Shown piece by piece: positions 24,759 to 64,000 of a DNA stretch of 64,000 bases. The stretch covers positions 2,787,138 through 2,851,137 of the forward strand of contig JADCRB010000016.1 in the NCBI GenBank assembly GCA_021464245.1. The letters are read 5' to 3'. The stretch's first letter is position 1. Every line of letters starts with the position of its first letter. The translations under genes were made by a program, and so were the position numbers. A model generated the notes under the pieces. That model had not been told where the DNA came from and did no database searches. It worked only from the letters and a program-made list of their open reading frames with translations. This DNA is from Carallia brachiata (taxonomy: Eukaryota > Streptophyta > Magnoliopsida > Malpighiales > Rhizophoraceae).

Positions 24759-24856
24759 CTAAACTTCGTCAATAGGAGCAACAGTCTTCCATCTTTGACT
24801 TTCTTTGAGAAGCTTCTTCTTCAACCCATTTTTATTAATCTTCTGTTTGTCGTTTG

Positions 24857-26323: not shown

Positions 26324-26335
26324 GCTCTGATACCA
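26324..26335 (-). other. Primer binding site, initiator-Met tRNA type
   Basis: Minus strand TGGTATCAGAGC, three bases inside the 5' LTR that begins at 26339 on the plus strand. Confidence 0.88.
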
Positions 26336-26338
26336 AAT

Positions 26339-36371: not shown

Positions 36372-37146
36372 TAAGTCGTTGTGATTTGAAGGCTTGGAAG
36401 ACAAAATTTGACTTGAAATTTTTTAATATTACGATTTTGATATTTAAAAGTTTGACCTAATTGAATTTGCATCTCAATTGAACAAATTTTGTACAGTTTG
36501 CAATCTAAACTTGTACCTAACTTTATAAACCAAAAGTGAAAAAAAAACAAATCATCTTATTTCAAAATCTTACTTCATGTTGAATTAGGCTCACCTCTAT
36601 GAAAACTCTAATCGAGTAATGGTTATTGAGTATAGATATATTATTGGCATTGTGTTATCTCTCTCTCTCTTCTTCTTTGTCTCTCTCCAGTTAAGGATCA
36701 ATAGAGTTAAAACTCTTCAAATATTTTCAATGTAATTATTAATTTTTTTTGTTATTTCTATTGTTTATCATCTTAACTTAATTTCTAGTCTTTTTATTTT
36801 TGTTATTCATTCATTGAAAAAGTACTTATTTGTTTTTTGTTGTTATTATAATGGTTCAGATTTCTAGCAATAGCGACCGTTTTCATTTTAGCTATTCTTT
36901 CTAGTAGCATGCAAAATTAATATATCCTAATATTTGTGAATATTTAAAATTTAAAAATTCTTTTTCAAGCCGGGAGGTCGTGAATATTTTATGAATATTT
37001 AAAATTTTTTTCATTCTTTCTAGTACTCCATTTTTTTTTTTTTTTAAATTCAATGTGTCCACTACAAAAGACTATAAACAATAAAGAAAAGTAAACATTA
37101 ACATGGTCATGCAAAGGTCCAACGGAGAATCTTCGTCCCATAATGA

Positions 37147-40508: not shown

Positions 40509-41332
40509 TGTAAATGCGTTTTTTTAGTTTTTTTTTTTTTTAAAAGAAGAAATAGTCGATGCCAAATGGTCGGCGTTGCCAAATTCAAAATTGGCAACGC
40601 CGACCCAAAGAAAAAGAAAAAAAAAAAGATTCTTTTCCCATATGATGTTTACATGGGAAAGGAGTCTTATAAATAGACCCTCACTTCTCAGTTCAAAATA
40701 TATTCAGTAAATCTGTAAACAAAAAAATACAGAGAATTTGAGAGAAAAAGAAAATTTTGAAAATCTCTCAAAAAAATTTCTCCTTTTTTTACATGTTTTA
40801 TTTTGCAGTATACTCTACTAACTCCTTTTTGAGAGATATTTCAGGTGTAAACCCTAAAAAATTTGTTGTTTCCATTTCTAAATTTATTTTTGGGTTTATA
40901 TTCTCCAATCGCTATAAATTTGAAATTATGAGAATATAGATCTAAAAATATCAAATTATTACAAAACCAGCTGGGATCAAGCCTCATACGGCCCTCAGTA
41001 AAGTCCAGGCAACTCATCCGAAAACAAGTCCCTTCGACCCTCGGTGAAATTAAGTCAGATCGGTTCAGATTAGGTCTCTGCGGTACTTAAACGTAGCTCA
41101 GACGTCTACCTCAGATCCAGTTTCAGTCTACCCAGTTCAAGAAAAAGCTGTGGAATTTATTGCTGTCAAGATCAAACTCGAGCAGCCATTGACAGAGTTA
41201 CGAAGGAACACTAATCGGAGGATCTACGAAGATGGACCCCACGTAAATTTTCTTTTATTTTAAATTTTTATTTGTAATTTATTTTTATATTTTCGAGTCT
41301 AACTGTTACAGCCTCGAAATTTACCCGTTACA
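40509..41332 (+). repeat. 5' LTR of Tat element 1
   Basis: Starts TGTAAATGCG, ends CCCGTTACA. TATA box TATAAATAG at 40668-40676. A perfect inverted repeat with 15-bp arms (40568-40582 / 40591-40605, loop ATTCAAAA) lies about 65 bp upstream, followed by a second smaller one (TTTCCCAT ... ATGGGAAA, about 40636-40660). Confidence 0.9.
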
Positions 41333-41573: not shown

Positions 41574-44102
41574 ATGGTACCGAAAAGGAGTACAACTGCT
41601 GCCACAAAAAAGAAGGCAGCTGCTCCACTGCCTGCATCAACTACCCTACCTGGGTACGTAGGCCTAGAAACCCATAGACGAACACGATTTCTCGCTGTCC
41701 AAACTCGACAAAACATTGAAACGGAGAGTCCACAGCTCGCACAGCAACAGGATCTCTCCCCTGATTTTCTTGGCTCATGGAGGAGTAGATCACCTACCCC
41801 GATTGAAGCCAGGGGCAACGCGACGAAGCCTACTCAACAGAATCCAACATATTATGTAGAGATCCACATAGAAGAATTAGAGGAATCCTCTACTCCAGTC
41901 TTTCGTGGAGCCTCATCTGTTGTCGTCATGAAGACCAACACAACCAGCACAGAGGAAAGGATTTCAGAATTAGAGAACAAGATTTTGCATCTGATCAGAG
42001 TTGTAGAGGAAAAAGATCAACAGATCGCCGCTCTTAAAGGAAAAGGCTCGATCCAAATTGATCCCGAAATCCGCGATAAGCAACCATATCCACCCGGTTT
42101 CACTCTAGAAGCCTTACCAGCCAACGTCTTCACTGCAGAAAAGCAACTAGGTAGTTCTACACAGCTGCCACCCTCAAATTCTGTATCTTCGCTCTCTGTT
42201 CAACAATTGCAGGAAATAATAGTTAGTACGATCCGCCTGCAACAAGCTACATCCTTCAAAGGATCACAGATGTACGTCAAACCGTACACCAGACGAATCG
42301 AAAGTCTCAACATGCCTTTGGACTACCAGCCGCCCAAATTTCAACAATTCGACGGACGAGGCGATCCCAAACCGCACATCGCCCACTTCGTTGAAACCTG
42401 CAACAACGCATGGACTTACGGAGATCTCTTGGTGAAGCAGTTTGTTCGTTCACTCAGGAAGACCGCTTTCACCTTGTTCATAAATCTTGAACCAGGATCG
42501 ATCGACAGTTGGGAACAGCTACAATGAGAGTTCCTCAACAGATTTTTCAGCATTCGAAAGACGGTAAGTATGATGGAACTTATCAACACCAAACAAAGGA
42601 AATGAGAGCCTGTTGTCGAATATATCAACAGATGGCGTGCCCTCAGCTTGGACTGCAAAGATCAACTGACAAAGACTTCTACCGTAGAGATGTGCATCCA
42701 GGGAATGCATTGGGAGCTGTTATACATCCTGCAGGGTATCAAACCCCGAACCTTCGAAGAACTGGCGACCTGCACACATGATATGGAGATAAGCATCCAG
42801 ACTTCTGGGGGTATAGTTCCCATCTAGTTGGACCAGCAAGGAGGCAGAAGGGAGATTAAGAAACCCAACAGTTCAAAAAAAGGAAAAGAAGTGATGACTG
42901 TTAAAGCCACACCAGTAAAAGTGGGAGCCAAAGTTAAGGTAAATCCTCCGACCCAAATAACTCAGCCAAAACAATCAGAAAGGCGGAAGGTGACATTGCG
43001 AGAGTTAGAGCAGAAGCGGTATCTATTCCCCAACTCAAACGTCTCTGACATTCTTGAACAACTTTTGGAGGTGAAGCTGATCGAACTCCCAGAGTGCAAG
43101 CGGCTTAATAAAAAGGATCAAGTCAGCGATCTAAGAATCTGCAAATATCACCGCATAGTAAGTCATCCAACCGAGAAGTGTTTCGTCCTGAAAGAGCTAA
43201 TCATGAAGCTCAAAAGCCAGAATAAAATCATTTTGGACCAAGAAGGCGTAACCTCAGCAAACCAGACCACCATCACTTCAAAACCATCAGAAGGGGTGAC
43301 ACACCGTAAGGAGGAGCCGCTCGACAACAAAAAGTCGACAATAAAGAAGGTATATGAAGCTCTCCAAACCCTTCTCGCTAACCTTCAGCTGTTTGCAACT
43401 TTGCAATCAACAGAAGTATGGCAAAACCAAGTCAGCAACACTCTTCATAACTCAGCTGGATCTCTTCTATTGAGTAATTCCAACTTGACAGAGCATCAGA
43501 CGACCCAAAATCACGTCGGATGTTACTCCGCTATCTCATTTTCAGATGAGGATCTCCTGCTGGAGTCCAAATCCCATAATCGACCGCTATATGTATTAGG
43601 CTATATGAGAGAACAGAAGGTCCGACGTATTCTAATTTACGATGGCTCGACAATCAATATTATCCCAAAATCCACCATAAAGGAGTTCGGCATTGGCATT
43701 GATGAGTTATCAGACAGCCGCTTGATGATTCATAGCTTTAATCAAAGAGGACAGAAAGTAATTGGGATGATTCGCCTGGAGCTAACTATCGGTAGTCTCA
43801 CTTCTAGCACTCTATTTCATATGATCGATGCACGTACCATGTATAAGATGTTGCTAGGATGACCGTGGATTCATGGAAATAGAGTTGTGCTCTCAAGCCT
43901 GCATCAGTGCTTCAAGTACTACAATGGTGGCATTCTAAAGGTCAATGCTGACTTAAAGCCGTTTGATGATGCTGAATCACATTTAGCGGATGCAGTCTTC
44001 TACACCGACACAGACAATCCGGAGATCATTCCATTAAAAGCTACTTGGACTGGGGGCATCCACAAAAAGGGAAAAGCTATCGAAGAATCTACCAATGCTT
44101 AA
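41574..44102 (+). pseudogene. Gag-protease of Tat element 1, broken
   Basis: ATG at 41574 (MVPKRSTTAATKKKA). One frame runs to TAA 44100-44102 but is cut by TGA 42525, TGA about 42603, TAG about 42825 and TGA 43860. Gag has a coiled-coil ERISELENKILHLIRVVEEK near residue 125, the capsid-like PKFQQFDGRGDPKPHIAHFVE, and a CHHC knuckle variant (CKYHRIVSHPTEKC). Protease shows ILIYDGSTINIIP, the DGS variant of the active site, and ends TLFHMIDARTMYKMLLG. Intact family members would make particle protein and maturation protease from this region. Confidence 0.88.
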
Positions 44103-44890
44103 CCCCATGCTCTGACAAATGGAAAGCTGTCATAGCTTGCTAAACTTCGTCCGAAGGATGTTGCATCTTCAAGCACCACTCCAGTCCTATGCTATGTACC
44201 GAAGTCACGTCGCCCAGAAGGTCAACCCCCTTTCTTTTATTGTATTGATCTTAAATAGGAGCAAGGACATAACCAACCCAAAACAAAAGAATTGCACGAC
44301 TTGAAGGAGACTTACACTCTGCTTATACCAAAGATTGAGTCGGTTTTGTCTTCAAAACCATTAAAAGGCTTCGTCAGACCATACACAGGAGCAGTCGAAA
44401 GCGATTCACTTCCAGAAAGAAGAACACACAAAAGGATTCGATCCTAATGCATACAAGCTCTTGACCAAGACAGGTTAAGACTTCTCAAACCTGAGCACAA
44501 TGGGTACGCTGCCGTCCACACATGACGCCGCTTCTCAATCATCACTGTCCCGACCTGTCTTAGGCTATTAGGAGAAGTCACCTATGTGAATCACGCTAAA
44601 GAGCCGAAACCGAGCAACTGATGCACGTGCCATCACCACTACCACCAAACAAGATAGGCTTATCCATTCAAACAAAGAAGATGAAGTCAAGGGCTCTACA
44701 TTTCATGTCACAATTAGCGAGGAGGCTGAGTCTGACTCATCAGACGGTGAAGTAAAGGAGGCTCCCCTGAAACTTGAAGATGGTTGTCAAGCAACTGTTG
44801 ATGAACTCAAGGAGGTCAATCTTGGCTCTCCGGAAGATCCCCGACCTACATTTGTAACTGCTTTACTTACTGCAGAAGAAGAACAAGAAT
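44103..44890 (+). pseudogene. Pol linker of Tat element 1, decayed
   Basis: Fragments of the protease-RT linker in mixed frames, ending with ISEEAESDSSDGEVKEAP and FVTALLTAEEEQEYVQVL shortly before reverse transcriptase. No catalytic domain; aligned to 60250-61000 of element 2. Confidence 0.6.
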
Positions 44891-45650
44891 ATGTTCAGGT
44901 ATTAAGTAAATACATGGACGTGTTCGCATGGAGTTACAAAGAAATGTTTGGACTTGACCCAAAAATTGTGGTGCATCGTCTAGCAGTAAAGAAGGGTGTT
45001 CGTTCTGTCAAGCAGTCACAACGACGGTTCCGCCCGGAACTTATTCCACAAATCGAGGAGGAGGTTAACAAGCTGATTAATGCTGGCTTCATCTGAGAGG
45101 TCACCTACCCAACGTGGATTGCCAACATAGTCCCGGTAAGAAAAAAGAATGGATAGTTAAGGGTATGTGTTGATTTTAAAGATCTTAACAGAGCCTATCC
45201 GAAAGATGACTTTCCATTGCCCATAACAAAGATCATAGTCGATGCAACAACGGGTCACAAAGCATTGTCCTTCATAGATGATTCTTCAGGCTATAACCAA
45301 ATCAGAATGGCACCCGAAGATGAGGAGTTGACAGCATTCCGTACCCCAAAAGGTATATACTGTTACAAAGTAATGCCGTTTAGATTAAAAAATGCTGGCG
45401 CCACTTATCAACGTGCTATCCAAAAAAATTTTGATGACATGTTGCACAAGATTGTAGAATGTTATGTTGATGACTTAGTAGTAAAGACTAAGGAGTGCAA
45501 AGACCATCTCGAGGATCTCAAAACGGTATTTGGAAGACTTCGCAAACATCAACTCAAAATGAATCCTCTCAAGTGCGCATTCGGTGTCACATCAGGCAAG
45601 TTTCTTGGGTTCGTGTTGCTTTATCGTGGAATCGAAGTTGATTAATAAAA
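44891..45650 (+). pseudogene. Reverse transcriptase of Tat element 1, broken
   Basis: MDVFAWSYKEM, KKGVRSVKQSQRRFRPEL, IANIVPVRKKNG, SSGYNQIRMAPEDEELTAF, and the catalytic YVDD (CYVDDLVVKT). In-frame stops at about 45094 (TGA) and 45157 (TAG), and a TAATAA at about 45643, inactivate it. YVDD and the Tat-specific wording match element 2. Confidence 0.9.
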
Positions 45651-46840
45651 GGTTGAGGCAATTCAAAAGATGTCTGAACCTACAAACCTGCATGCACTGT
45701 GAAGTCTACAAGGAAAGCTGGCCTACATTCGCCGTTTCATCTCCGACTTAGCTGGGAGGTGTTAACCTTTCCATCGACTGATGAAGAAGGATGTTAACTT
45801 CGAGTGGGACAAAGCTTGCAGCAAAGCCTTCGAGAACATAAAGAAGTACCTTTCCAATCCACCACTCCTGGGTGCTCCAATTCAAGGAAAGTCATTGATT
45901 CTCTACATTGCAGTGCAGGAAAAGTTTTTGGGAGCCCTACTTGCACAGGAAAATGAGCAGGGAAAAGAAGTTGCTCTGTATTACTTGAGCAGAACACTAA
46001 ACGGTCCGGAACTGAGCTATTCGCCCATTGAAAAGACATGTTTAGCACTGTTCTTCGTCATTGATAAGCTAAGGCACTATATGCAAGCTCACACAATACG
46101 TCTCATTGCCAGAGCTGATCCTATCAAATATATCTTATCTAGACTAATCTTATCAGGACGACTTACCAAGTGGGCAGTAATGCTACAGAGTTACGACATT
46201 CTTTACGTGCCTCAAAAAGCAGTAAAGGGACAAGCCCTAGCAGATTTCTTGGCAGATCACCATGTCCCATCGGATTGGGAGTTCACAGATGATCTTTCGG
46301 ATGAAGAGGTCTTTTACATTGAGACACTACCACTATGGACGATGTTCTTTGATGGTGCAGCAAGACGTGATGGTGCTGGTGCCGGCATAGTGTTTGTCAC
46401 TCTTCAACGACAAATACTACCATGTGCTATCATTCTCGGTGAATTATGTTTAAATGATGTTGCTGAATACCAGGCTCTGATCATTGGTCTTCAAAGGGCA
46501 GTCGATATGAAGATTCCAACTATAGAAGTCCATGGAGATTCCTAACTCGTCATCAACCAACTTATAGGGTTGTATGATGAAAAGAAAAAAGATCTTACAC
46601 CTTACCATCAACGTGCTCGACAGCTAATGGATGAATTTGAAAGCATCACCTTGGAGCATGTGCCTCGACGAGAAAACACTCAGGTAAACACGTTGGCTAA
46701 CCTGGCCACTTCTCTGGTAAAGTCAGAAATTCAGGCTACAGTTGTTGTCGTATGTCAGAAATGGATAGTGCCACAGAAGGATGATGAAGAAACTACAGTA
46801 GCCAACGTTGCATCTGTACGTCTCACAGAGAACGAAAAAT
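45651..46840 (+). pseudogene. Dual RNase H (retroviral type plus archaeal type) of Tat element 1
   Basis: First RNase H: FEWDKACSKAFENIKKYL, LILYIAVQEKFLGALLAQ, ELSYSPIEKTCLALFF. Second, archaeal-type domain: WTMFFDGAARRDGAGAGIVFV, NDVAEYQALIIGL, IEVHGDS and HVPRRENTQVN, giving the D-E-D residues. Tandem RNase H of this type defines the Tat clade. A TAA at about 46543 cuts the second domain. Confidence 0.9.
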
Positions 46841-47324
46841 TCTGGAGGCGTTATGGGCGTATCGTACAACTTACCGGACTCCAACACAGGCGACGCCATA
46901 CTCACTTGTCTACGGTGTCGAAGCAATACTTCCGTTAGAAACACAGATTCCATCTCTGCGCATGACTATTCTGGAAGGACTCACGCAGGAGGAGAATGCT
47001 CGCCTACGTTTGGATGAGTTAGAAGCCCTTGATGAAAAGAGACTCGAAGCACAACAACAACTCGAATGCTACCAAGCCCGGCTCACCAACACGTTCAACC
47101 GCAAGGTTCGCCTTCGATCTTTTCAAGTTGGAAACCTTGTTCTTGTAGTACGACGGCCCATCAACATGAAGCATCGGCCTGGTGACAATCTTACTTTCAA
47201 ATGGGACGGGTCATACTTAGTGCAGCAGGCCTATACTCACAACGCTTACATACGGTTAGACCATTAAGGTGTCTGAATTGGCCTAATCAATGGTAAATTT
47301 TTGAAACAGTATTATGTGTAAATA
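46841..47324 (+). pseudogene. Integrase C-terminal remnant of Tat element 1
   Basis: Only the end of integrase survives: LEGLTQEENARLRLDELEALDEKR, VRLRSFQVGNLVLV and the final NGKFLKQYYV. Compared with element 2, about 1 kb containing the zinc-binding and DDE core is missing; the text jumps from the end of the second RNase H straight to the post-core region. This deletion alone would prevent autonomous integration. Confidence 0.85.
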
Positions 47325-47921
47325 TGTTAAAAAAATAAAAAAAATCGAAAAAAATAGAAAAAAATCAAAAATAGAAAAAAAAATAAAAAAGAAGAAAAAA
47401 ATAAAAAAAGAAGAAAATAAAAAAAATTTTAAAAAAAATTCAGAAGTCCCGATATGAAAGTCCAAGCGAGAGTTCAAACCCGAAAATCTAAACTCAAACA
47501 CTTGATTCCAAATCAGAAAACTCAAGCCCAACTCCAAAGCCTGAAAACCAAATCCAAATCCAAAACCCAAACACTCGACTCAAATCCAAAAAGTCTAAGT
47601 CGAGAAGCCGAAACGCTCTACCCAAATCCAAAAGCCCAAATCAAGAAAGCCCAAAAAAATCAAGTCCAATTTAAAACCCAGACACAAAACCTAAGCCGAA
47701 AAACCCAAATCCAATCCAAAACTCGAAACCCAAAAATCCCAAGTTCTAGACACAGTTCAGAACCCAAGTTCAAAATCCAATCCAACTCCTGCCTCGCATA
47801 AGTATAAACTGTGAAAGGCCCAAAAATATAAAAGCGACGGAGGGTTTGAGTCTGAAACCCAGCCTCAGTCTCAACCGATTTTCACCACATATCAGACCTT
47901 TGCTCCTCTGCTAGAAGAAAG
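47325..47921 (+). other. Low-complexity spacer between pol and the homeobox frame
   Basis: 47329-47450 is A-rich with scattered AAAAATAGAAAAA words; 47455-47790 is an imperfect array of CCAAATCC/CCCAAAC/CACTCGACTC words. The same arrangement, inverted, lies at 56640-57065 in element 2. Confidence 0.7.
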
Positions 47922-48501
47922 ATGGAATCAATTGGAGAACCTCAAGACAAGGGAGAAGAAAAGTCACCCCGCACAAGGTGGCAACCAACCATGGCACAAC
48001 TGTAAATTTTGGAGGAAGTCTTCCACAACAATAGAGGTATTATTCCTAATACATCGAAGGAAAAAATGTGTTTTATTGGTTCCAGAATCAGAGAAATAGG
48101 AAGAAACCAGCACTGAGAACTACTTTTTCCAAAGCACAGTCTGCCGTTCCGATAGTAGATCCCACCGGAACAGCTTCGCCCTCAAATGAAGCAAATCCGA
48201 GTTCTACCACTGCAATGGTCTCTTCAGGCTATAACGATCAAAGCCATAGCTTATGGGAGCATGCGTACTGGTCCTAGTGATCTTACGCAATCAGTCAAGG
48301 GTTCATCTCCCCTAAGTACTTAAGTTCAGGAGGGACTTTTCTAGCATAAGGAAGTCATTCTAGCGAAACTTTGCCTCTCTTCTCAGAATATTCCAGCAGC
48401 ATCAACCAGCCGGAATGCTCCATCGACGTCAACATCATCGGCCCACCAGACGAGGCCGAGCTTGACTTGGAGTTGTGCCTCGAGCCCCGTCAGGATGGCT
48501 A
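47922..48501 (+). pseudogene. WUSCHEL-like homeobox cargo of Tat element 1, broken
   Basis: ATG at 47922; SPRTRWQPTMAQL opens the homeodomain and keeps the canonical Arg-Trp, then a TAA interrupts it. About 44 bp of the homeobox is deleted near 48047, after which VFYWFQNQRNRKKPALRT (from 48068) gives recognition helix 3. Further on are TLPLF (48368-48382), an exact WUS-box core, and LDLELCLE near 48462, an EAR motif with one Arg-to-Cys change. A TAG at about 48275 replaces a Trp present in element 2. In plants WUS is a nuclear repressor/activator of stem-cell fate; this copy is dead, but it shows the cargo predates the split of the two elements. Confidence 0.85.
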
Positions 48502-48513
48502 ACAAGATAAGGT

Positions 48514-48592
48514 GCAACGACTTCTACAGCATACGGCAACGACTTCTGCAGCACACGGCAATGACTTCTGCAACACACGGTAACGACTTTCG
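48514..48592 (+). repeat. 22-bp tandem array downstream of the homeobox frame
   Basis: 3.6 copies of GCAACGACTTCTGCAGCACACG variants; the matching array in element 2 is at 55837-55918. Confidence 0.85.
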
Positions 48593-48780
48593 TGATGGGC
48601 GTCAGCCGCTGCCTCTTTTGTCTCTTATGAGGGAAAGGGACGTGGATGACCCTACTCAATACTGTGTACCTTCTTTTTGACTTTTTTTTAAAAAAAAAAG
48701 CTCTGTATTGTATGTATATATATCCTACATGCCCAATTCATAACACTCACCCCTTATCTCTTCTTTTTCTCAAAAAGAAA

Positions 48781-49060
48781 ATGGCTAGTCTCTGCACTTG
48801 TCTTAGGAAGTTATTTGATCAAGGGGATGGAGATGCACGAGCTAAGAAATGAATGAGTAGTCTTCCTCGAGGGATCCCTAAAAGCTCTTGAAACTCAGTC
48901 TCTAACGCCATTAATGTCATGGAGTTCCAACCACTCTCCTTAGTTCACATCTACTATAGAGGGATGAGAAGCTGCAATCATCCTGATATTCCTTTAGATG
49001 CGGCGACATACAGAGAAGTTCCAACTACTCTCCTTACGTCGGAGCAGACTCGAGAATCAT
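48781..49060 (+). pseudogene. Second cargo frame (MASLCTCL...) of Tat element 1, broken
   Basis: ATG at 48781 in good context (AAAATGGC) opens MASLCTCLRKLFDQ; a TGA at 48850 and an insertion/stop shortly after break it. Later segments (VMEFQPLSLVHIYYRGM, REVPTTLLTSEQT) match the intact 82-codon frame in element 2. A TATATATAT stretch lies about 60 bp upstream. Function unknown. Confidence 0.6.
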
Positions 49061-49444
49061 CACTATAGTCAGTCTCTCTGTGTGCTGGTCTTGAAGTTTC
49101 GTAGTGCTGGGCCTTCCTCATGAGAAGGTTCAAGTTCTTTGCCTACCGAATCATCCTCACCAGAGCTATGGAACTTTAAGACATATAAATTTTTTTTTTG
49201 CGAGCTATGGAAGTTCGACGTCACCTGGAGTCAAGGCTTCAATTTCTATATTGGCTGAGCTGCTAACTTCCTCAAGATCGTATCAGATTCCTATTGCGAT
49301 TCAACAACAGCAGGCTAGCCAGAGATAGAAGATTTCAACATTCAATGTTCATCAGTACGTTTCAAGCTTCAAACTGGACTTCAAGACTCAGATCGAATCA
49401 CGACCACAAAGTTCTTCCTTACCGACCCTTGAAGTGGGAGCATT
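49061..49444 (+). other. 3' untranslated region and polypurine tract of Tat element 1
   Basis: No supported frame; ends with GAAGTGGGAGCATT, the polypurine tract, next to the LTR start TGTAAACG at 49445. Confidence 0.65.
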
Positions 49445-50231
49445 TGTAAACGTGTTTTTCAGTTAAAAAAAAAATAAGAAGAAATAGTCAATGTCAAATG
49501 GTCGACGTTGCCAAATTCAAAATTGGCAACGCCGACCCAAAGAAAAAGAAAAAAAAAAATTCCTTTCCCATGTGATGTTCACATGGAAAAAGAGTCTTAT
49601 AAATAGATCCTCGCTTCCCAGTTCAAAGCATATTCAGCAAATCTGTAAACAGAAAAATACAGAGAATTTGAGAGAAAAATTTTTTTTGAAAATCTCTCAA
49701 GAAAATTTCTTTTTTTCTTACATGTTTTACTCTGCAGTATACTCTTCTAACTCCTTTTTTAGAGATATTTCAGGTGTAAACCCTAAAAAATTTGTTGTTT
49801 CCATTTCTAAGTTTATTTTTGGGTTTATATTCTCCGATCGCTTTAGATCTAAAATTATAAGAATATATATCTAAAAATATCAAATTATTACAAAACCAGC
49901 TGGGATCAAGCCTCATACGGCCCTCAGCAAAGTCCAGACAACTCATCTGAGAACAAGTCCGTTCGACCCTCGATGAAATTAAGTTAGATCGGTTCAGATC
50001 AGGTCTCTGCGGTTCTTAAACGTAGCGCAGACGTCTACCTCAGATTCAGTTTCAGTCTACCTAGTTCAAGAAAAACCTGTGGAATTTATTACTGTCAAGA
50101 TCAAGCTCGAGCAGCCCTTGACAGAGTCACGAAAGAACACTAATCGGAGGATCTACGAAGATCGACCCCACGTAAATTTTTTTTTATTTTAAATTTTTAT
50201 TTGTAATTTATTATTATATTTTCGAGTCTAA
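49445..50231 (+). repeat. 3' LTR of Tat element 1, truncated at its end
   Basis: About 787 bp, aligned throughout with the 5' LTR (roughly 90% or better by eye), including the inverted repeat (49500-49514 / 49523-49537, one mismatch) and TATA box. It stops at GAGTCTAACT, lacking the last ~30 bases ending GTTACA. Confidence 0.85.
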
Positions 50232-50232
50232 C

Positions 50233-51366
50233 TAGCCAAGGTTTTCATTTTATTTATTCTTTCAGGTGGCAAGTTAACTTAATTTCTCCTAATACTTGTG
50301 AATATTTAACATTTTAAATATTTGTGAACATTTAAATTAATGTGAAGTTATTTTTAGGTCCCAATCGACAGTAAACTAGTAATTGTCTTTTAGTTTCCTT
50401 TTATAATATTGCCACCAACAGTTAGAACCTAAACTCTTATTTTAGAAATTTTAGATTCTAATTTTCAAAAGGAGTGGCAAGATTTATGGGGATGTGGAGA
50501 ACCAACTCATTGTGTAGCTCTGGTTATAACAAGCCCAACAAGCCTCTTAATTGAAAAAAAGAAATGAACAACAAATTACAATAACATAACTTTCATGCAG
50601 GAATATTTGACTGTTCCCACAATATGACCTCAACTTCCTCGTGCATTCCTTAATTTTCAAACCTTAGGTCGACATGATTTGATGGTTTGAAAAACACTTT
50701 CAAGCATAACCACTTTGAATTGCAAAGAATTTCAAAATGAACGAAATTGTTCAATGTTAATGTGTCTTATTTTAATAGGAAAAATACTTTAACTTGAGTT
50801 TGGTAGCAAACTTGCACCTTACATTTCAATTATAATAGAATATACTCTATGATGAAAAATACTTTTTTTTTTTTTTGGGATCAATGATGAACAACAGTTA
50901 ATCAAACATAACGAGGTAAAATAAATATATGTTTATTTCTTTTACAAAAGTTTAAATGTTTCAAAAATAATGGTTCTAGCGATTAACCAATGCCAAAAAG
51001 AAACACATAAAAAGGAATTTATCGGTAAAGTTTTAGCAGCAACATTGTCACTAAAAAAAAAAAGTCAATGCAGAAAACATTCAAATCCCAATAAGCCCCA
51101 AACTGGTTTCGTTCTTCTGAAAAATGAAGGGCAATTTACTCTTGTTAGTACATTTATGGTAGGAGTTTTGTAATTATTTCGAACTTTTATTAATGATAAT
51201 GAACAGAGAAGAGTGATTGTTACTCAAATATATGTCAATATAATTTTTTGTTAACTTTTAAAATATAAGGTTTAAATCATTATTAGGTTCAAATTATAGT
51301 GCTTTGTCTGGATGTGAATTTTCCTTTCAGATGTCTATGTTATGACTTATTATGTTATGTTAAACT
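50233..51366. other. Continuation of repeat unit B, then intergenic
   Basis: 50237-50400 continues copy B. The rest is AT-rich; a TTGGTAGCAAACTTGC-containing stretch and A/T runs show no gene or clear element. Confidence 0.5.
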
Positions 51367-51371: not shown

Positions 51372-52153
51372 TGTAAACGCGTTTAAAAAAAAAAGAAAAA
51401 AAGTCAAAACCGCGTTAGTCACCAATTGTACGGTTGGTAATTTTTATTTTTTTACTTCCACACAATATTTTTACACAGGAAGGAAGGTCTATAAATAGGC
51501 TCTCGCCTCCAGTTCAAAATCATATTCAGAAAATCTATAAACAGAAAAATATAGAGAACTTGAGAGAAAAAGAAAATTTTAAAAATCTCTCAAAAAATTT
51601 TCTCTTTTTTCTACGTATTTTTAGTCTACAGTATATTCTCCTAACTCCAATTTTAGAGATATCTCAGGTGTAAACCCTAAAAAATTTGTTGTATCTATTT
51701 CTAAGTGTATTTTGAGTTTATACTTTCCGATAGCATCAGAACTGGATCTGTGAGGTATAGATATAAAATATTAAAATATTACAAATCCGTCTGAGATCAA
51801 ACCTAATACGGTCCTTAGAAAAATCTAGACAACTCACCTGAGAATAAGTCTCCTTAGCCCTCGATCAAATTAAGTCAGATCGAATCAGATCTAGTCTCTG
51901 TGGTCGAAGTATTTACCTCAGATCCAGTTTCAGTCCCCAGCAGGATCTAGTCAGTTCGAGATAAAACTGTGAAATTTATTTATATCAAAATCAAGCTCGT
52001 GCAGTCCTTAACAAAGTCATGAAATAACACTAATCAGAGGATCCGACGAAATCGACTCCACGTAAATTTTATTTTATTTTAAATTTTTATTTATAATTTA
52101 TGTTTAAATTTTCGAATTTAATTATTATAGGTTTGAAATTTACGTCCGTTACA
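51372..52153 (+). repeat. Solo LTR related to the Tat family
   Basis: Starts TGTAAACGCG, ends GTCCGTTACA, 782 bp, with TATA box CTATAAATAGG near 51490 and the family passages CAGGTGTAAACCCTAAAAAA and CCACGTAAATTTT. The perfect duplication CTTGT flanks it (51367-51371, 52154-52158), so it arose by LTR-LTR recombination after a normal insertion. Confidence 0.88.
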
Positions 52154-54338: not shown

Positions 54339-55008
54339 TGTAAGACGTAAATTTCGAATTTAAAACAATTAAACTCGAAAATACAAAAATAAATTACAAA
54401 TAAAAATTGTAAAGTAAAAGAAAATTTACGTGGGGACGATCTCCGTAGATCCTCCGATTAGTGTTCCTTTTTTGACTCCGTCAAGGGCTGCACGAGCTTG
54501 ATCTTGACAGAAATAATTTCCACCGCTTTTTCTTGAACTGGATAGACTGAAACTGTATCTGATTTGGACGTTTTGATTACGTTTAGGAACCGTAGAGACT
54601 TGATCTGAGCCGATCTGGCTTAATTTCACCGAGGGTCGAATGGATTTGTTCTCGGATGAGCTACCTGAATTTTGCTGAGGCCGTATGAAACTTAATCCCA
54701 GCCAGATTTGTAATATTTTGATTTTTTTTTTTTACTATCTCTCTTTTTTTTTTTCTTTTTTTTCTTTTTTCTTCCGCTTGCTTTTTTTTTTTTTTTTTTT
54801 TTCGCTTCGCTGCCTCTTCTGCGCTTTATTTTTTTGCTGCTGCTTTCTGCGCCTTTTAATTTCAATTGGGGAGGCCATTTATAGGCCTCCCCCTGCCTGC
54901 CACCAACCATTTGGTTGGTGGCAATTAATGAGGTTGGCAGCCACCAACCTTGAAGGTTGGCGGCTGCCAACCATATATATTTTTTTTTTCTTAAATTATT
55001 TGTTTACA
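54339..55008 (-). repeat. 3' LTR (minus orientation) of Tat element 2
   Basis: Plus strand starts TGTAAGACGTAAATTTCG and ends TTGTTTACA. It carries three adjacent palindromes: 54868-54892 (9-bp arms GGGGAGGCC around TATAAAT), 54900-54921 (10-bp arms) and 54932-54972 (18-bp arms, one mismatch). The TATA box lies in the loop of the first. Confidence 0.88.
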
Positions 55009-55399: not shown

Positions 55400-55648
55400 C
55401 TAAGTCTGCTTCGACGTAAGGAGAGTAGTTGGAACTTCCCCGTACATCGCCGCATTCAAAGGAAGATTAGGATAATTGCAGCGTCTCATCCCTCTGTAGT
55501 AGATGTGAACTAAGGAGAGTAGTTGGAACTCCATGACACCGATGGCGTTAGGGATCCCTCGAGGAAGACTACTCATTCTTTTCTTAGCTCGTGCACCTCC
55601 AACTTCTTGATCGAAGAACTTCCTGAGACAAGTGCAGAGACTAGCCAT
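55400..55648 (-). CDS. Second cargo frame, 82 codons, function unknown
   Basis: ATG at 55648 in strong plant context (AAAATGGCT). The product starts MASLCTCLRKFFDQ, with Cys residues near the N-terminus that could be lipidated, then RMSSLPRGIP, VMEFQLLSLVHIYYRGM and EVPTTLLTSKQT to a TAG. It is intact here and recognisable but broken in element 1 (48781). It does not match a family I know. It lies downstream of the homeobox frame and 22-bp array, with a minus-strand TATA-like run (55702-55714) about 55 bp upstream of the ATG, so it may have had its own promoter. Confidence 0.55.
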   Translation of the reverse strand: MASLCTCLRKFFDQEVGGARAKKRMSSLPRGIPNAIGVMEFQLLSLVHIYYRGMRRCNYPNLPLNAAMYGEVPTTLLTSKQT

Positions 55649-55701
55649 TTTCTTTTGAGAAAGAAGAGCTGAGGGGTGAGTATTATAACTCGGGAATGCA
55701 A

Positions 55702-55714
55702 GATATATATATAC
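55702..55714 (-). promoter_or_regulatory. TATA-like stretch ahead of the second cargo frame
   Basis: Minus strand TATATATATATCT, 54-66 bp upstream of the ATG at 55648; a similar run occupies the same place in element 1 (about 48714). Confidence 0.4.
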
Positions 55715-55836
55715 ATGCGATAAAGTTTTTTTTTTTTTTTTGAAAAAGTCAAAAAGAAGGTACGCAGAATCGAGCAGGGTCATCCACGTCCCTTTCCTGT
55801 ATAAGAGACAAAAGAGACAGCGGCTGACGCGTGTCA

Positions 55837-55935: not shown

Positions 55936-56547
55936 CTAGCGAGGCCCAAGGCGCAGCTCCAAGTCAAGCTCGGCCTCGTCTGGTGGGCCGATGATGTTGA
56001 CACCGCTTTCCGGCTGGTTGATGCTGCCGGAATATTCTTGAAAGAGAGGCAAAATTTCGCCGGAATGACTCCTATGTGCTAGAAAAATTCCTCCTAGACT
56101 TAAGTATCTAGGAGGGATGAACCCTTGGCTGACTCCGTAAGACCACCAGGACCAGCATGCATTCTCCCATGGGCTACGACTTTGATGAACATACCGTGGA
56201 GAGACCATTGCAGTGGAAGAACTCGGACCTGCTTCATTTGAGGGCGAAGCTGTACTAGTGGGATTTACTATCGGAACGACAGACTGTTCTTTGGAAGAAG
56301 CAGTTCTCAGTGCTGGTTTCTTTCTGCTTCTCTGATTCTAGAACCAATAAAACACATTTTTTCCTTCGATTGCCCCTAGCGGGCGCAATCGTGAGACAAG
56401 TTGGTAAATTTGAGATGCATTAGGAATAATACCTCCATTGTTGTGGAAGACTTCCTCCAAAATTTGCAGTTGTGCCATGGTCGGTTGCCACATTGTGCGG
56501 GGTGACCTTTCTTCTCCCTTGTCTTGAGGTTCTACAACTGGTTCCAT
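55936..56547 (-). CDS. WUSCHEL-type homeobox protein (HD, WUS box, EAR) carried by Tat element 2; one nonsense codon
   Basis: ATG at 56547, stop TAG at 55936-55938: 203 codons interrupted once, by TAG at codon 70 where element 1 keeps CAG (Gln). Homeodomain spans residues 17-77: W20, P22, Q46-I47, L54, IEGKNVFYWF (60-69), then N71 and RSRKK. The FHNNGGIIP loop (34-42) has the same length as the YNN loop of WUS, one residue longer than in most WOX proteins. ILPLF (165-169) matches the WUS-box core TLPLF, preserved exactly in element 1. LDLELRL (194-200) is an EAR motif that recruits TOPLESS-type corepressors in plants. No introns are seen, suggesting capture from spliced RNA. The homology is strong; expression and function are unknown. 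Confidence 0.85.
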
Positions 56548-57100
56548 CTTTCTTGTGGCAGAGGAGCAAAGGTCTTGGTATGTGGTGAAGATCGGTTGAG
56601 ACTGATGCTGAGTTTCAGACTCAAACCCTCCGTTGCTTTTATATTTTTGGGCCGTTCACAGTTTATACTCATGCGGGCCAGGAGTTGGATTGGATTTTGA
56701 ACTTGGGTTCTGGACTGTGTTTGGAATTTGGAATTTTTGGCTTTTGGGTTTTGGATTGGATTTGGGTCGAGTGTTTGGGCTTCTAGACTTGGATTTTTGG
56801 ACTTGGGTCGAGTGTTTGGTTTTGGATTTGAATTTTTGGATTTGGGTTGAGTGTTTGGGTTTTGACTTTGAATTGGGCTTAAGTGTTTGGGTTTGGACTT
56901 TCGCTTGGTCTTTCAGATCGGGACTTCGTAATTTTTTTTTTCTATTTTTTTTTTATTTTTTTTTCTTTTTTCTATTTTTTTATTTTTTTCTTTTTTCTAT
57001 TTTTTTTTTATTTTTCTATTTTTTTTTGATTTTTTTTTCTATTTTTTCTATTTTTTTTTAAACATATTTACACATAATACTGTTTCAGAAATTTACCATT
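56548..57100 (-). other. Low-complexity spacer with about 40-bp repeats
   Basis: 56690-56930 (plus) is rich in GGATTTGGG/TTTGGGTTTTGG, with GGGTCGAGTGTTTGG-like words recurring at 56764, 56805 and 56844, period about 40. 56930-57060 is T-rich. The homologous spacer is in element 1. Confidence 0.7.
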
Positions 57101-58363
57101 GATCGGGCCGATTCGGACGCCTTCTTGGTCTGACAGCATGTAAGCGTTGTGAGTGTAGGCCTCCTGCACTAAGTATGGCCCGTCTCATTTGGAAGTAAGC
57201 TTGTCACCAGGCCGATACTTCATGTTGATGGGCCGTCGCACTGCAAGAACAAGGTCTCCAACTTGAAAAGATCGAGGGCGGACCCTGCGGTTGAACGTGT
57301 TGGTGAGCCGAGCTTGGTAGCACTCAAGTTGCTGTTGTGCTTCGAGCCTCCTTTCATCTATAGGGCTTCTAACTCATCCAGACGTAGGCGAGCATTCTCT
57401 TCCTGTGTGAGTCCTTCCAGAACAGCCATGCGCAGGGATGGAATCTGTGTTTCCAACGGCAGTATTGCTTCGACACCGTAGACAAGTGAGTATGGCGTCG
57501 CCTGTGTTGGAGTCCGGTAAGTTGTAAGCCCATAATGCCTCCGGAATTCTGTCATGCCAATCTCTTTTGGATTTAGAGACTACCTTTCGCAACAGGTTGC
57601 ATAAGGTCTTGTTGAATGCTTCGGCCAAGCCATTTGCTGGGGCATTGTACATGGATGACTTGTACTGCTTGAACTTGAACTTCTCGCAGAGCTTGTCGAT
57701 TAAGCTGTTGTAGAACTGCTTACCATTATCAGTGATGATGAATCGAGGGACTCCATAGCGATAGATCAGCTGAGTCCGGATGAAATTGGCAACATGCTCC
57801 TTCTTTACCTCTCTAAGTGGAATGGCTTCAGCCCATTTTGAGAAGTAGTCGGTTGCTGCGAGGATGTACAGGTGACCCAGGGATGACTTTGGCAAGGGCC
57901 CCACTAAGTCGAGACCCCAAGCTTCAAAGGGCCAGGATGAGACAGTTGGATGCAGTGGCTCCGGTGGTTGATGTATGTAATTGGCATGAAATTGACAAGC
58001 TTGACAAGTTTTAGCAAACTCAATTGAATCACGTACCATGGTTGGCCAGTAGTATCCCATCCTTCTGAGTTGGAAGTGCAACTTAGGCCCTGATTGATGT
58101 CCGCCACAAACACCAGAATGTGCTTCAGTGAGAGCCTGTTTTGCCTCTTCATTGCCTAGGCAACGAAGTAAAACTCCATCAAAAGACCTTCGATACAGAG
58201 CATCCTTGAGATATATGGGGAGCTCGTCGTTGAATTTCTGTCTTATGACGACGATCTTCAGGCAGCTTCCCGTGCTGTAAATAGTCAATGATTGGTTGGC
58301 GCCAATCTTCGTCCTCCGCGAGACGTATAGATACAGCGTTGGCTGCTGTAGTTTCTTCATCAT
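57101..58363 (-). pseudogene. Integrase of Tat element 2
   Basis: Largely open from 58363 to 57374. The zinc-binding end is EAHSGVCGGHQ ... CQACQFHAN. The core has LDLVGPLPKSSLGHLY (D), FIITDNGKQFYNSL (D) and NGLAEAFNKTL (E). A one-base shift near 57530 moves into the C-terminal frame (TPYSLVYGVEAILPLE, then GLTQEENARLRLDELEAL). The complete D-D-E set distinguishes it from element 1, where this segment is deleted. The shift and upstream disruptions make it inactive as a polyprotein. Confidence 0.88.
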
Positions 58364-59581
58364 CCTTTTGTGGCACTATCCATTTCTGGCATACGGCAAC
58401 AACTGTAGCCTGGATTTCTGACTTTGCAAGAGAAGTGGCCAGGTTAGCCAACGCGTCTGCCTGAGTGTTTTCTCGTCGAGGCACATGCTCCAAGGTGATG
58501 CTTTCAAATTCATCCATTAGCTGTCGAGCACGTTGATGGTAAGGCGCAAGATCCTCTTTCTTCACGTCATACAATCCTGTAAGTTGGTTGATGACGAGCT
58601 GGGAATCTCCATGGACTTCTATAGTTGGAATCTTCATATCGACAGCCATTTGAAGACCAATGATCAAAGCCTGGTATTCAGCAACATTATTTGAACATAA
58701 CTCACCGAGAATGATAGCATATGGTAGTATTTGTCGTTGAGGAGTGACAAACACTATGCCAGCACCAGCACCATCACGCCTTGCTGCACCATCAAAGAAC
58801 ATCGTCCATGGTGGTAGTGTCTCAATGTAAAAGACCTCTTCATCTGGAAGATCATCTGTGAACTCCCAATCTGACGGAACAGGGTGATCTGCAAGGAAGT
58901 CTGCTAGGCTTGTCCTTTGACTGCTTTTTGAGGCACGTAGACAATGTCGTAGCTTTGTAGGATTACTGCCCACTTGGCAAGTCGTCCTGACAAGATTGGT
59001 CTAGATAAGATATATTTGACAGGATCAGCTCTGGCAATGAGACGTACCGTGTGAGCTTGCATGTAGTGCCTCAGCTTGTCAATGGCAAAGAACAGTGCTA
59101 GACATGTCTTTTCAATGGGCGAATAACTCAGCTCCGGACCATTTAGTGTTCTGCTCAAGTAGTACAGGGCAACTTCCTTTCCCTGCTCATTTTCCTGTGC
59201 AAGCAAGGCTCCCAAAGATCTTTCCTGCGCTGCAATGTAGAGAATCAACGACTTTCCTTGAATTGGAGCTCCTAGGACCGGTGGATTGGAAAGGTACTTC
59301 TTTATGCTCTCAAAGGCTTTGCTGCAAGCTTCGTCCCACTCGAAGTTGACATCCTTCTTCATCAACCGATGGAAAGGTTGACATCTCCCAGCTAAATTGG
59401 AGATGAAACGGCGAATGTAGGCCAGCTTTCCTTGTAGACTTCGCAGCTCGTGCAGGTTTTTAGGTTCAGGCATCTTTTGAATTGCCTCAACCTTTGACTG
59501 ATCAACTTCGATTCCACGATGGCGCACGAACCCAAGAAACTTTCCTGATGTGACACCGAATGCGCACTTGAGAGGGTTCAT
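58179..59581 (-). pseudogene. Dual RNase H of Tat element 2
   Basis: First domain (59581-58904): KKDVNFEWDEACSKAFESI, KSLILYIAAQERSLGALLA, SYSPIEKTCLALFFAID. The frame shifts near 58940, then the archaeal-type domain (58973-58179) has WTMFFDGAARRDGAGAGI, NNVAEYQALIIGLQMA, VHGDSQLVINQL and RRENTQADALANLA, with all acidic residues kept. It sits between RT and integrase as in the Tat clade. Confidence 0.9.
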
Positions 59582-60216
59582 TTTGAGCTGATGCCCGAAG
59601 TCTTTCGAACACTGTCTTGAGATCCTCGAGGTGGTCTTTGCGCTTCTTAGTCTTTACAACTAAGTCATCAACATAACATTCTACAATCTTGTGCAGCATG
59701 TCATCAAAAATTTTTTGCATAGCACGTTGATAAGTGGCGCCAGCATTTTTCAATCCAAACGGCATAACTTTGTAGCAGTATATACCTTTTGGGGTGCGGA
59801 ATGCTGTCAACTCCTCGTCTTCTGGTGCCATTCTGATTTGGTTATAGCCTGAAGAACCATCCATGAAGGACAATGCTTCGTGACCCGTTGTTGCATCGAC
59901 TGTGATCTCCGTTATGGGCAATGGAAAGTCATCTTTCGGCAGGCCTGTTAAGATCTCGAAAATCAACACATACCCTCAACTGTCCATTCTTCTTTCTTAC
60001 TGGGACAATGTTGGCAATCCACGTTGGGTAGGTGACCTCTCGGATGAAGCCAGCATTGATCAGCTTGTTCACCTCCTCCTCGATTTGTGGAATGAGTTCC
60101 GGGCGGAACCGTCGTTGTGGCTGCTTGACAGAACGAACACCCTTCTTTACTGCTAGACGATGCACCGCAATTTTTGGGTCAAGTCCAGGCATTTCTTTGT
60201 AACTCCATGCGAACAC
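59502..60216 (-). pseudogene. Reverse transcriptase of Tat element 2
   Basis: FAWSYKEMPGLDPKIAVHRL through NGQLRVCVDFRDLNR, then (after a frameshift near 59945) FMDGSSGYNQIRMAPEDEE and CYVDDLVVKTKKRKD with the YVDD catalytic box. A second shift near 59570 leads into RNase H. Otherwise close to full sequence and better kept than in element 1. Confidence 0.9.
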
Positions 60217-61530: not shown

Positions 61531-63529
61531 CATACAGCGGCCGATTGTGGGGTTTGGACCCCAGCAGGAGATCCTCATCTGAAAATGAGATAGCAGAGTA
61601 ACATCCGACGTGATTTTGGTCCGTCTGTTGCTCCGCTGAGTTAGAATCATTGATGGCTGAGATTCAGCTGAGGTCTGGAGAGTATTGCTGACTTGATTTT
61701 GCCACACTTCTGTTGATTGCAAAGCTATAAACAGCTGAGGGTTAGCGAGAAGGGTTTGGAGAGCTTCATATACCTTCTCCGTTGTCGACTTTTTGTTGTC
61801 GAGCGGCTCCTCCTTACGGTGTGTCACCTCTGATGGTTTTGAAGTGATGGTGGTCTGGTTTGCAGGTTAGCCTTCCTGGTCCAGAATGATTTTATTCTGG
61901 CTTTTGAGCTTCATGATTAGCTCCTTCAGGACGAAACACTTCTCGTTGGATGACTTACTATCCGGTGATATTTGCAGAATCTTGGATCGCTGACTCGATC
62001 CTTTTCATTCGGCCGCTTGCACTCTGGGAGTTCGATCAGCTTCGCCTCCAAGTTGTTCAAGAATGTCGGGGACGTCTGAGTCGGGGAATGGATACTGCTT
62101 CTGCTCCAGCTCTCGCAATGTCACCTTCCGCCTTTCCTGTTGTTTTGGCTGAGTTATTTGGGTCGGAGGATTTACCTTGGCTTTGCGCCCACTTTTACTG
62201 GTGCGGCTTCAACAGTCATCACTTTCCTTTTCCTTTTCCGGAGCTGTTGGGTTTCTTAATCTCCCTTCTGCCCCCTTGCTGGTCCAACTGGATGGGAACC
62301 GTGCCTCCGGAAGTTGGATGCTTATCTCCATATCATGTGCGCGGGTCGCCAGTTCTTCGAAAGTTCGGGGTTTGACACCCTGCAGGATGTATAACAGCTC
62401 CCAATGCATTCCCTGGATGCACATCTCTACGGCAGAAGTCTCCGTCAGGCGATCTTTGCAGTCCAAGCTGAGGGCACGCCATCTGTTGATGTATTCGACA
62501 ACGGGCTCTCCTTTCCTTTGTTTGGTGCTGGTAAGCTCCATCATACTTACCGTCCTTCGAGTGCTGAAAAATCTGTTGAGGAACTCTCGTTGTAGCTGTT
62601 CCCAACTGTCGATCGATTCTGGTTCAAGATTTATGAACCAGGTGAAAGCGGTCTCCCTGAGTGAACGAACAAACTGCTTCACCAAGAGATCTCCATAAGT
62701 CCCTGCGTTGTTGCAGGTTTCAACGAAGTGGGCGATGTGCTGTTTGGGATCGCCTCGTCCGTCGAATTGTTGAAATTTGGGCGGCTGGTAGCCCAAGGGC
62801 ATGTTGAGACTTTCGATCCGTCTGGTGTACGGTTTGACGTACATCTGTGATCCTTGGAAGGATGTAGCTTGTTGCAGTCGGATCGTATTGGCTATCATTT
62901 CCTGCAATTGTTGAACAGATAGCGAAGCTATAGAATTTGAGGGTGGCAGCTGTGTAGAACTACCTGGTCGCTTTTCTGCAGGGAAGACGTCGGCTGGTGT
63001 GGCTTCTGGAGTGAAACCGGGTGGATATGGTTGCTCCTCGCGGATTTCGGGATCAACTTGGATCGGGGCTTTTCCTTTGAGAGCTGCGATCTGTTGATCT
63101 TTTTCCTCCACGACTCTGATCAGCTGTAAAATTTTGTTCTCCAATTCTGAAATCTTTCCTCTGTGCTGGTTGTGTTGGTCATCATGACGGCAACAGATGA
63201 GGCTCCGGGAAAGACTGGGGGAAAACTCTTCTGATTCTTCTGTGGATCTCTACGAATGAGTTGGATTTGTTGAGCAGGTTCGTCGTGTTGCCCCCGACTT
63301 CGATCGGGGTGGGTGATCGACTCCTCCATGCGGCAAGAGAGTCAGGGGAGAGATCCTGTTGTGCGAGCTGTGGACTCTCCATTTCGACATTTTGTCGGGT
63401 TTGGACGGCAAGAAATTGTGTCCGTCCCCGGGTTTCTGGACCTGCGTACCCAGGTAGGGTAGTTGATGCAGGCAATGGAGCCGTTGCCTTCTTTTTTGTG
63501 GCAGCAGTTGTACTCCTTTTCGGTGCCAT
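61516..63529 (-). pseudogene. Gag of Tat element 2
   Basis: ATG at 63529 (MAPKRSTTAATKKKA). A frameshift near 63200 separates the N-terminus from the main part 63144-62209, which has the coiled coil ENKILQLIRVVEEKDQQIAAL, QPPKFQQFDGRGDPKQHIAH and the capsid-like FVRSLRETAFTWFINLEP and REFLNRFFSTRRTVSMMEL. A shift near 62205 and stops (for example near 61868) follow before the knuckle region. The plus-strand frames opposite it are shadows. Confidence 0.88.
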
Positions 63530-63745: not shown

Positions 63746-64000
63746 TGTAAGGCGTAACTTTCGAGCCTAAAACAATTAAACTCAAAAATACAAAAATAAA
63801 TTACAAAAAAATTGTAAAGTAAAAGAAAATTTACGTGGGGTCGATCTCCGTAGATCCTCCGATTAGTGTTCCTTTTTTGACTCCGTCAAGGGCTGCACGA
63901 GCTTGATCTTGACAGAAATAATTTCCACCGTTTTTCTTGAACTGGATAGACTGAAACTGTCTGATTTGGACGTTTTGACTACGTTTAGGAACCGTAGAGA
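63746..64000 (-). repeat. 5' LTR of Tat element 2, cut by the window edge
   Basis: Plus strand starts TGTAAGGCGTAACTTTCG and aligns with 54339-54605; the rest, with the TATA region, lies outside the window. Confidence 0.88.

What the first reader, a model, noticed from the sequence alone, without database searches (positions are those of the whole stretch)
55936..56547. A Tat-lineage retrotransposon carries a WUSCHEL-like transcription factor gene
Seen: between pol and the 3' LTR, in element orientation, lies a 203-codon frame with a WOX homeodomain (IEGKNVFYWF, WUS-length YNN-type loop), a WUS-box-like ILPLF and a terminal LDLELRL EAR motif, in the same order as in WUS. Known: WUS-clade proteins control shoot stem-cell identity and repress through the WUS box and EAR. 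Inference: the element family captured a host WUS/WOX mRNA and moved it around. A retroelement expressing, or dominantly interfering with, a meristem regulator could gain access to cells that form the germ line. I know of no commonly described plant retrotransposon with this cargo.
Basis: partly seen in the sequence, partly recalled or inferred. Interest (0 to 1): 0.93.

Follow-up and report, generated by a model that had tools for sequence, protein, structure and literature searches.

The report
Jumping gene carrying WUSCHEL-like stem-cell regulator
A plant retrotransposon family present in very many copies carries, inside itself, a gene resembling WUSCHEL, the master regulator of plant shoot stem cells; the two copies first noticed are broken, but a good number of copies elsewhere in the same genome have the whole reading frame.

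Summary
The frame at 55936-56547(-) is real and WUSCHEL-class: PDB WUSCHEL E=1.6e-16, no gaps. It is not open: TAG interrupts the homeodomain at codon 70. The second copy has a 46-nt deletion and four stops. Both lie between pol and 3' LTR of Ty3/gypsy elements with the Tat-type second RNase H.

In the host genome (337.5 Mb) the DNA search gave 1219 first-look candidates; all 40 that were scored match over 609-612 of 612 bases. Long frames (ATG, at least 195 codons) occur in 10 of those 40 and in 18 of 20 copies picked by homeodomain score.

The cargo homeodomain is 33/64 identical to host WUS, synonymous sites saturated, dN 0.43: long protein-level constraint, inside the element or before capture. 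Among copies, selection is weak or absent.

Prior art: a 2023 meeting report describes LTR-flanked WOX amplification in two Vigna species, over 1000 copies in one. This host may well not be Vigna, on weak evidence. Effects on stem cells are untested.

The parts
55936..56547 (-). WUS-class homeobox frame of copy E2 (203 codons plus stop, broken by TAG at codon 70)
56338..56340 (-). in-frame TAG in the homeodomain (WF*NQ)
56548..56700 (-). leader upstream of the WOX ATG; strongly conserved between most copies
   Evidence: 87.5-99.3% identity to E2 in 14 loci
56638..56643 (-). TATAAA about 95 nt upstream of the ATG, candidate core promoter (inference)
   Evidence: at this place in 16 of 17 copies looked at
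55400..55783 (-). second small ORF downstream of WOX, no Pfam match
57377..58363 (-). integrase (rve, H2C2) of E2
58182..58802 (-). second RNase H (PF13456) of E2, Tat hallmark
   Evidence: PMC5348765 and PMC8775202 passages
58907..59581 (-). Ty3/gypsy RNase H of E2
59505..59975 (-). reverse transcriptase part of E2
62212..62898 (-). gag of E2
54339..55008 (-). 3' LTR of E2
   Evidence: outer ends placed by eye at TG...CA
63746..64000 (-). 5' LTR of E2, cut by the window end
47922..48489 (+). WOX remnant of copy E1 (46-nt deletion, four stops)
40509..41332 (+). 5' LTR of E1
49445..50233 (+). 3' LTR of E1, truncated at its 3' end
36372..36956 (+). paralogous repeat without E1, giving an approximate empty site

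Best explanation
A Tat-type Ty3/gypsy retrotransposon family carries a WUS-class homeobox gene as a sense-strand accessory gene between integrase and 3' LTR. Its source copies encode a protein of about 203-207 residues with a WUS-length homeodomain, a WUS box (TLPLFP in many young copies) and a C-terminal LxLxL motif. The gene was taken up long ago, or from a donor already far from today's host WUS genes, passed through RNA, and stayed open in lineages that transpose; individual insertions then decay. Most likely working (inference, about 0.3): transcription from the internal TATA leader gives a WUS-like repressor that binds WUS-type sites, recruits co-repressors through WUS box and EAR, and favours stem-cell identity in cells where the element transposes. 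Shown: anatomy, high copy number, mobility, long open frames, past constraint. Inferred: expression, DNA binding, benefit to the element.
For: WUS match without gaps. Tat domain set. Whole-genome DNA search: 1219 first-look candidates, 40 scored, all 40 cover 609-612 of 612 bases at 95-100%. In the homeodomain search 101 of 150 scored hits, on 53 contigs, have the hit length of the element gene once host WOX genes are set aside (47, tallied by eye and counted in 100); 49 of the 101 were read as sequence and all 49 are the element gene. Long frames: 18 of 20, 3 of 14 and 10 of 40 in three samples (122; L025 is in two of them). Same order at 14 loci. Young LTR pairs and one TSD (87). Stem constraint: homeodomain 33/64 identical to host WUS, pS 0.83 (saturated), dN 0.43; of 4000 neutral simulations to that identity none kept IEGKNVFYWFQN and 10% had no stop in 64 codons. 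Homeodomain omega 0.535, 2dL 7.66, in 29 copies. Leader conserved in most loci, with TATAAA (83, 96).
Against: E1-E2 differences in the WOX frame fit neutrality (synonymous fraction 0.255 against 0.276 expected, P 0.62), while RT and RNase H of the same two copies are constrained (P 0.004 and below 0.001). Linker omega 0.95-0.96. In the 40 DNA-picked copies homeodomain omega is 0.685, not significant, and stops are not depleted there (5 of 15, in 65 of 207 codons). Singleton versus shared variants: P 0.22 over the whole frame, 0.054 in the homeodomain. The 29-copy homeodomain test is biased because 27 of those copies were picked by homeodomain score. WUS-type sites (motifs recalled) are not enriched in 4 of 5 LTRs. 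No expression data.
Confidence: 0.62

Rival explanations
1. Passive passenger. The WOX gene was captured once, does nothing for the element, and is copied because it sits inside a successful element; open frames reflect recent copying from few source copies.
For: Neutral-looking differences between E1 and E2, linker omega about 0.95, stops not depleted in the homeodomain, no overall shared-versus-singleton difference.
Against: Saturated synonymous but limited amino-acid change against host WUS, and retention of homeodomain, WUS box and LxLxL end; N-terminal and C-terminal omega below 1 in the DNA-picked set (2dL 8.12 and 4.29, among five tests); conserved leader.
Confidence: 0.35
2. The constraint predates capture: a divergent WUS-type host gene, since lost or not sampled, was captured fairly recently and has evolved neutrally since.
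For: The host WOX genes found here (WUS, WOX1, 2, 3, 4, 5, 9 and 13 types, named by their homeodomains from recall) contain no close relative of the cargo; no AU test places the cargo beside one of them; most copies read are 86-100% identical to one intact copy in the frame (80% for E1 with its gap).
Against: Weak constraint within the family. No intron was seen in the copies read, but I did not search for an intron-bearing relative.
Confidence: 0.3
3. Segmental duplication or chance neighbourhood of a WOX gene and LTRs, not cargo.
For: Only two copies were visible in the window; L015 and L016 are so alike that they may be a duplicated or doubly assembled stretch.
Against: The window copies are inverted relative to each other, E1 has an approximate empty site, 40 of 40 scored genome matches, shared internal order at 14 loci, target-site duplication at one copy.
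Confidence: 0.01
4. The cargo acts through RNA: transcripts yield small RNAs that silence host WUS, helping or harming the element.
For: Very high copy number.
Against: Homeodomain DNA is saturated at synonymous sites against both host WUS genes, so matching stretches long enough for small-RNA targeting are unlikely.
Confidence: 0.03

Closest known systems
LTR-flanked WOX amplification in Vigna marina and V. riukiuensis (PMC10714607, one passage read; the bioRxiv paper it cites was not held)
   Same: WUSCHEL-related homeobox gene mostly between identical LTRs with target-site duplications, many copies, more than 1000 in V. riukiuensis.
   Different: The passage names neither element lineage nor WOX type. 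Here pol, Tat type, WUS box and EAR, decay, dating and selection tests are described. Whether the two families are related, or even the same, could not be tested.
Gene capture by plant LTR retrotransposons (review PMC13317346, passages; pepper NLR retroduplication PMC5664825, passages)
   Same: Host gene sequence carried between LTRs and multiplied through reverse transcription.
   Different: The passages speak of surveys of many captured genes and of NLRs; WOX, WUSCHEL and homeobox do not occur in the review and were not looked for in the pepper paper. Here one developmental transcription factor is a fixed part of a family with about a thousand candidate copies.
Tat lineage of Ty3/gypsy (PMC5348765, PMC8775202, passages)
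   Same: Dual RNase H; extra sequence between pol and 3' LTR (the latter recalled).
   Different: A homeobox cargo is not mentioned in the passages read.
WUSCHEL / STENOFOLIA homeodomains (PDB 6ry3, 6wig)
   Same: Homeodomain, WUS length; WUS box and LxLxL order as in host WUS.
   Different: Only about half the homeodomain residues match host WUS; third helix of young copies reads NRRSRKK instead of NHKARER; intronless; inside an element.

Membership tests
Tat lineage of Ty3/gypsy LTR retrotransposons | LTRs flanking gag-pol with integrase last | tested here: met
Tat lineage of Ty3/gypsy LTR retrotransposons | second, archaeal-type RNase H beside the Ty3/gypsy RNase H | tested here: met
   PF17917 then PF13456; criterion; the archaeal type itself was not tested by a tree
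Tat lineage of Ty3/gypsy LTR retrotransposons | RT phylogeny inside the Tat clade | not tested
   no plant element library at hand
WUS-clade WOX proteins | WOX homeodomain | tested here: met
WUS-clade WOX proteins | WUS-type extra residue in the loop | tested here: met
   gap-free against WUS, gap against STENOFOLIA and host WOX1/2/3/4/5/9/13
WUS-clade WOX proteins | WUS box TLxLFP (motif recalled) | tested here: met
   TLPLFP in 15 of 18, 0 of 3 and 4 of 10 long-frame copies of the three samples; looser box in 17, 2 and 10; ILPLFQ in E2; ETLPLFP in both host WUS genes
WUS-clade WOX proteins | groups with WUS in a tree | tested here: inconclusive
   long branch; AU p 0.61 with WUS, 0.63 WOX2, 0.33 WOX3, 0.24 WOX4, 0.23 WOX5, 0.09 WOX1
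WUS-clade WOX proteins | meristem repressor activity | not testable with these tools
   needs expression and binding assays
Retrotransposed mRNA capture | no introns where the donor gene has them | tested here: inconclusive
   host WUS genes have two introns by eye, cargo none, but donor identity is unproven and splicing of element RNA would look the same
Vigna WOX element family | sequence relationship | not testable with these tools
   no Vigna sequence at hand

The most novel reading that the evidence does not exclude
A Tat retrotransposon lineage has kept a WUSCHEL-class transcription factor as a functional accessory gene over a period long enough to saturate synonymous sites, and uses it to gain or keep access to stem cells that feed the germ line: a plant retroelement with its own stem-cell factor, perhaps arisen more than once or spread across plant families.
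Probability: 0.2. Interest if true: 0.93.

Novelty: new variant of a known kind. Interest (0 to 1): 0.7.

Why it matters
If the protein works, a parasite of the genome has armed itself with the regulator that defines shoot stem cells, the cells from which plant gametes descend. That would make the question of how plant retrotransposons reach the germ line testable with a single gene. Even as a passenger it fills the genome with WUS-class frames, which can mislead counts of WOX genes and could feed new genes to the host.

Tried and rejected
Segmental duplication: rejected. Simple dN/dS of 0.53 between E1 and E2 looked like selection but vanishes once the transition bias (57 to 14) is matched. 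Self-regulation through WUS sites in the LTRs (motifs recalled): no enrichment in 4 of 5 LTRs; L050 has an excess of TGAAT only, 13 against 3.9. Homologue search among 5.8 billion proteins: none at E 0.001. Viral contigs: none for WOX, none for RNase H. Bacterial and archaeal genome contigs: one 25%-identity hit, dismissed as chance. Host naming: plastocyanin scores about equally against 1ag6, 4dp0 and 9pcy (spinach, poplar, bean by recall; the calls give no organism), 77 of 95 identical to 9pcy by my count. A urease exon differs from 3la4 (jack bean, recalled) at about 15 of 94 positions by my count, but 3la4 and 4g7e (pigeon pea, recalled), both from the same tribe as Vigna, differ from each other at about 11 of 92 in that stretch, so this test is weak. 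Host WUS, WOX1, WOX4 and WOX13 genes come in pairs. Together these lean against Vigna but name no host. Literature searches for WOX or WUS in retrotransposons; among the listings and passages seen only PMC10714607 reports it. Passages looked at without finding it: PMC6482515, PMC7004133, PMC13317346, PMC6982007; PMC5664825 was read for retroduplication only.

Full report
What is there. On the minus strand, 56547-55936 reads as a 203-codon frame with a homeodomain, ILPLF and a terminal LDLELRL. The homeodomain matches Pfam PF00046 at 35 bits, cut-off 22.9, and the solved WUSCHEL homeodomain at E 1.6e-16 without gaps; the only other PDB match up to E 1, STENOFOLIA, needs a gap. The frame is broken: TAG at codon 70. 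A second copy on the plus strand, about 47922-48489, has a 46-nt deletion in the homeodomain and four stops. Among ungapped codons no stop of the sense frame is shared by both copies, whereas every other frame has 5-8 shared stops. Their common source was therefore open.

The element. E2 runs from a 3' LTR at 54339-55008 to a 5' LTR cut by the window end (63746-64000). E1 runs from 40509 to 50233, its 3' LTR truncated. Domains are gag, RT, Ty3/gypsy RNase H, a second RNase H of type PF13456, then integrase. The second RNase H is the Tat mark. E1 sits in a repeat whose other copy at 36372-36956 lacks it, an approximate empty site. The E1 LTRs differ at 56 of 761 aligned columns, the visible part of the E2 LTRs at 8 of 260. 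With a rate of 1.3e-8 per site and year, recalled and assumed, that is about 3 and 1.2 million years.

The genome. The window lies in a 337.5-Mb, 164-contig assembly. The homeodomain search had 1347 first-look candidates and scored 150; 101 of these, on 53 contigs, have the hit length of the element gene once host WOX genes are set aside (tally by eye, counted), and the 49 of the 101 that I read as sequence are the element gene. The DNA search with the WOX frame had 1219 candidates and scored 40; all 40 cover 609-612 of 612 bases at 95-100%. Candidate numbers are not copy counts. In 14 loci with 4 kb fetched, leader, WOX, the following region, the small ORF and the stretch before the 3' LTR occur in the same order in all 14, the integrase end in 11 and 3' LTR sequence in 12; the LTR matches in the other two lie out of place. 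L015 and L016 among them are nearly identical.

Copies with long frames. I read three samples; a long frame means ATG and at least 195 codons before the first stop. Twenty copies picked from the equal-score group of the homeodomain search: 18, of which 17 with a WUS-box-like motif. By the stricter count of no stop and no frameshift against one intact copy it is 16 of 20, one of them without the ATG. Fourteen others from that search: 3. Forty from the DNA search, including E2 and L025: 10. The first two samples are biased towards good homeodomains, the third towards copies like E2. For six young copies I fetched the places where the LTRs should lie. Five gave LTR pairs, mismatches in aligned columns: 11 in 885, 8 in 941, 17 in 814, 31 in 677, 2 in 741, the last three covering part of the LTR; one gave none. 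Of the two with both outer ends in view, one has a 5-bp target-site duplication (GTGGG) and one has none. At the assumed rate these insertions are about 0.1-1.8 million years old.

Origin of the gene. The host has two WUS genes, each with two introns by eye, and a third exon with ETLPLFP and SLEL. The cargo has the same motif order and no intron, so it passed through RNA; whether as a captured mRNA or by splicing of element RNA cannot be told. Host WOX1, 2, 3, 4, 5, 9 and 13 types, named from recall, were also found. In the tree the cargo copies form one clade (bootstrap 100) on a long branch, and no sister group tried is rejected by the AU test: 0.61 with WUS, 0.63 with WOX2, 0.09 with WOX1. 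The WUS-type extra residue and the WUS box favour WUS, but this is not proof.

Selection. Against host WUS the cargo homeodomain (L048) has 33 of 64 identical residues, 83% of synonymous sites different and dN 0.43; the two host WUS genes differ by dS 0.17. In 4000 neutral simulations run to the same identity, IEGKNVFYWFQN was never kept and 10% had no stop. The gene was under protein-level constraint for most of that branch, in the element or earlier in a host gene. Within the family the picture is weaker. E1 against E2 looks neutral in WOX, gag and the integrase part tested, and constrained in RT and RNase H. Twenty-nine distinct copies: omega 0.82 overall (2dL 3.58), homeodomain 0.535 (7.66), linker 0.96, C-terminus 0.76. 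Eleven intact ones: homeodomain 0.32 (4.19), whole frame 0.72 (2.34). Forty DNA-picked copies: 0.73 overall (5.41), N-terminus 0.29 (8.12), homeodomain 0.685 (2.45), linker 0.95, C-terminus 0.56 (4.29). Shared against singleton variants differ only as a hint in the homeodomain, P 0.054. Stops are not depleted in the homeodomain, 5 of 15.

How it may work. In most loci the 153-nt leader is among the best conserved parts of the 3' third, and it carries TATAAA about 95 nt before the ATG in 16 of 17 copies looked at. I infer an internal promoter and a WUS-like repressor. WUS-type sites are not enriched in four of five LTRs, so I see no sign of self-regulation. A benefit through stem-cell access is the boldest reading that remains open.

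What is known. A 2023 meeting report says that V. marina and V. riukiuensis have accumulated many WOX copies, over 1000 in the latter, mostly between identical LTRs with target-site duplications (PMC10714607, passage). The preprint it cites is not held. The present host may well not be Vigna: its plastocyanin matches the bean chain 9pcy at 77 of 95 positions (my count), no better than spinach or poplar chains (organisms recalled), and its WOX genes are paired although Vigna has no recent genome duplication that I know of. The urease comparison does not decide it, since two ureases of Vigna's own tribe differ almost as much from each other. If the host is another plant, WOX cargo in LTR elements is known from two lineages, and whether this is one old event or two is the open question.

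Noticed in passing
23897-26779: LTR pair (98.2% identical) around a copia-type gag with zinc knuckle and no pol domain found among the ORFs scanned: perhaps a short, young, gag-only non-autonomous element.
   Followed up: no
12813-19465: Ty3/gypsy chromovirus with gag, protease, RT and chromodomain between 92% identical LTRs.
   Followed up: no
28237-33359: Direct repeats of 627 nt, 97.9% identical, 4.5 kb apart start to start: likely another young LTR element.
   Followed up: no
55400-55783: Second ORF downstream of WOX with a TATA-like run before an inner ATG, 75-98% identical to E2 in 14 loci over its stretch, no Pfam match; may be another accessory gene.
   Followed up: partly
51467-52153: Further diverged LTR of the same family beside E1, possibly a solo LTR.
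   Followed up: no
L017, L018, L031-L034, L011, L012: Host WUS, WOX1, WOX4 and WOX13 genes occur in close pairs, suggesting a fairly recent whole-genome duplication.
   Followed up: partly
window:53346-53672 and 3019-3220: Self-inverted stretches about 70% identical to their own reverse complement, foldback or MITE-like.
   Followed up: no
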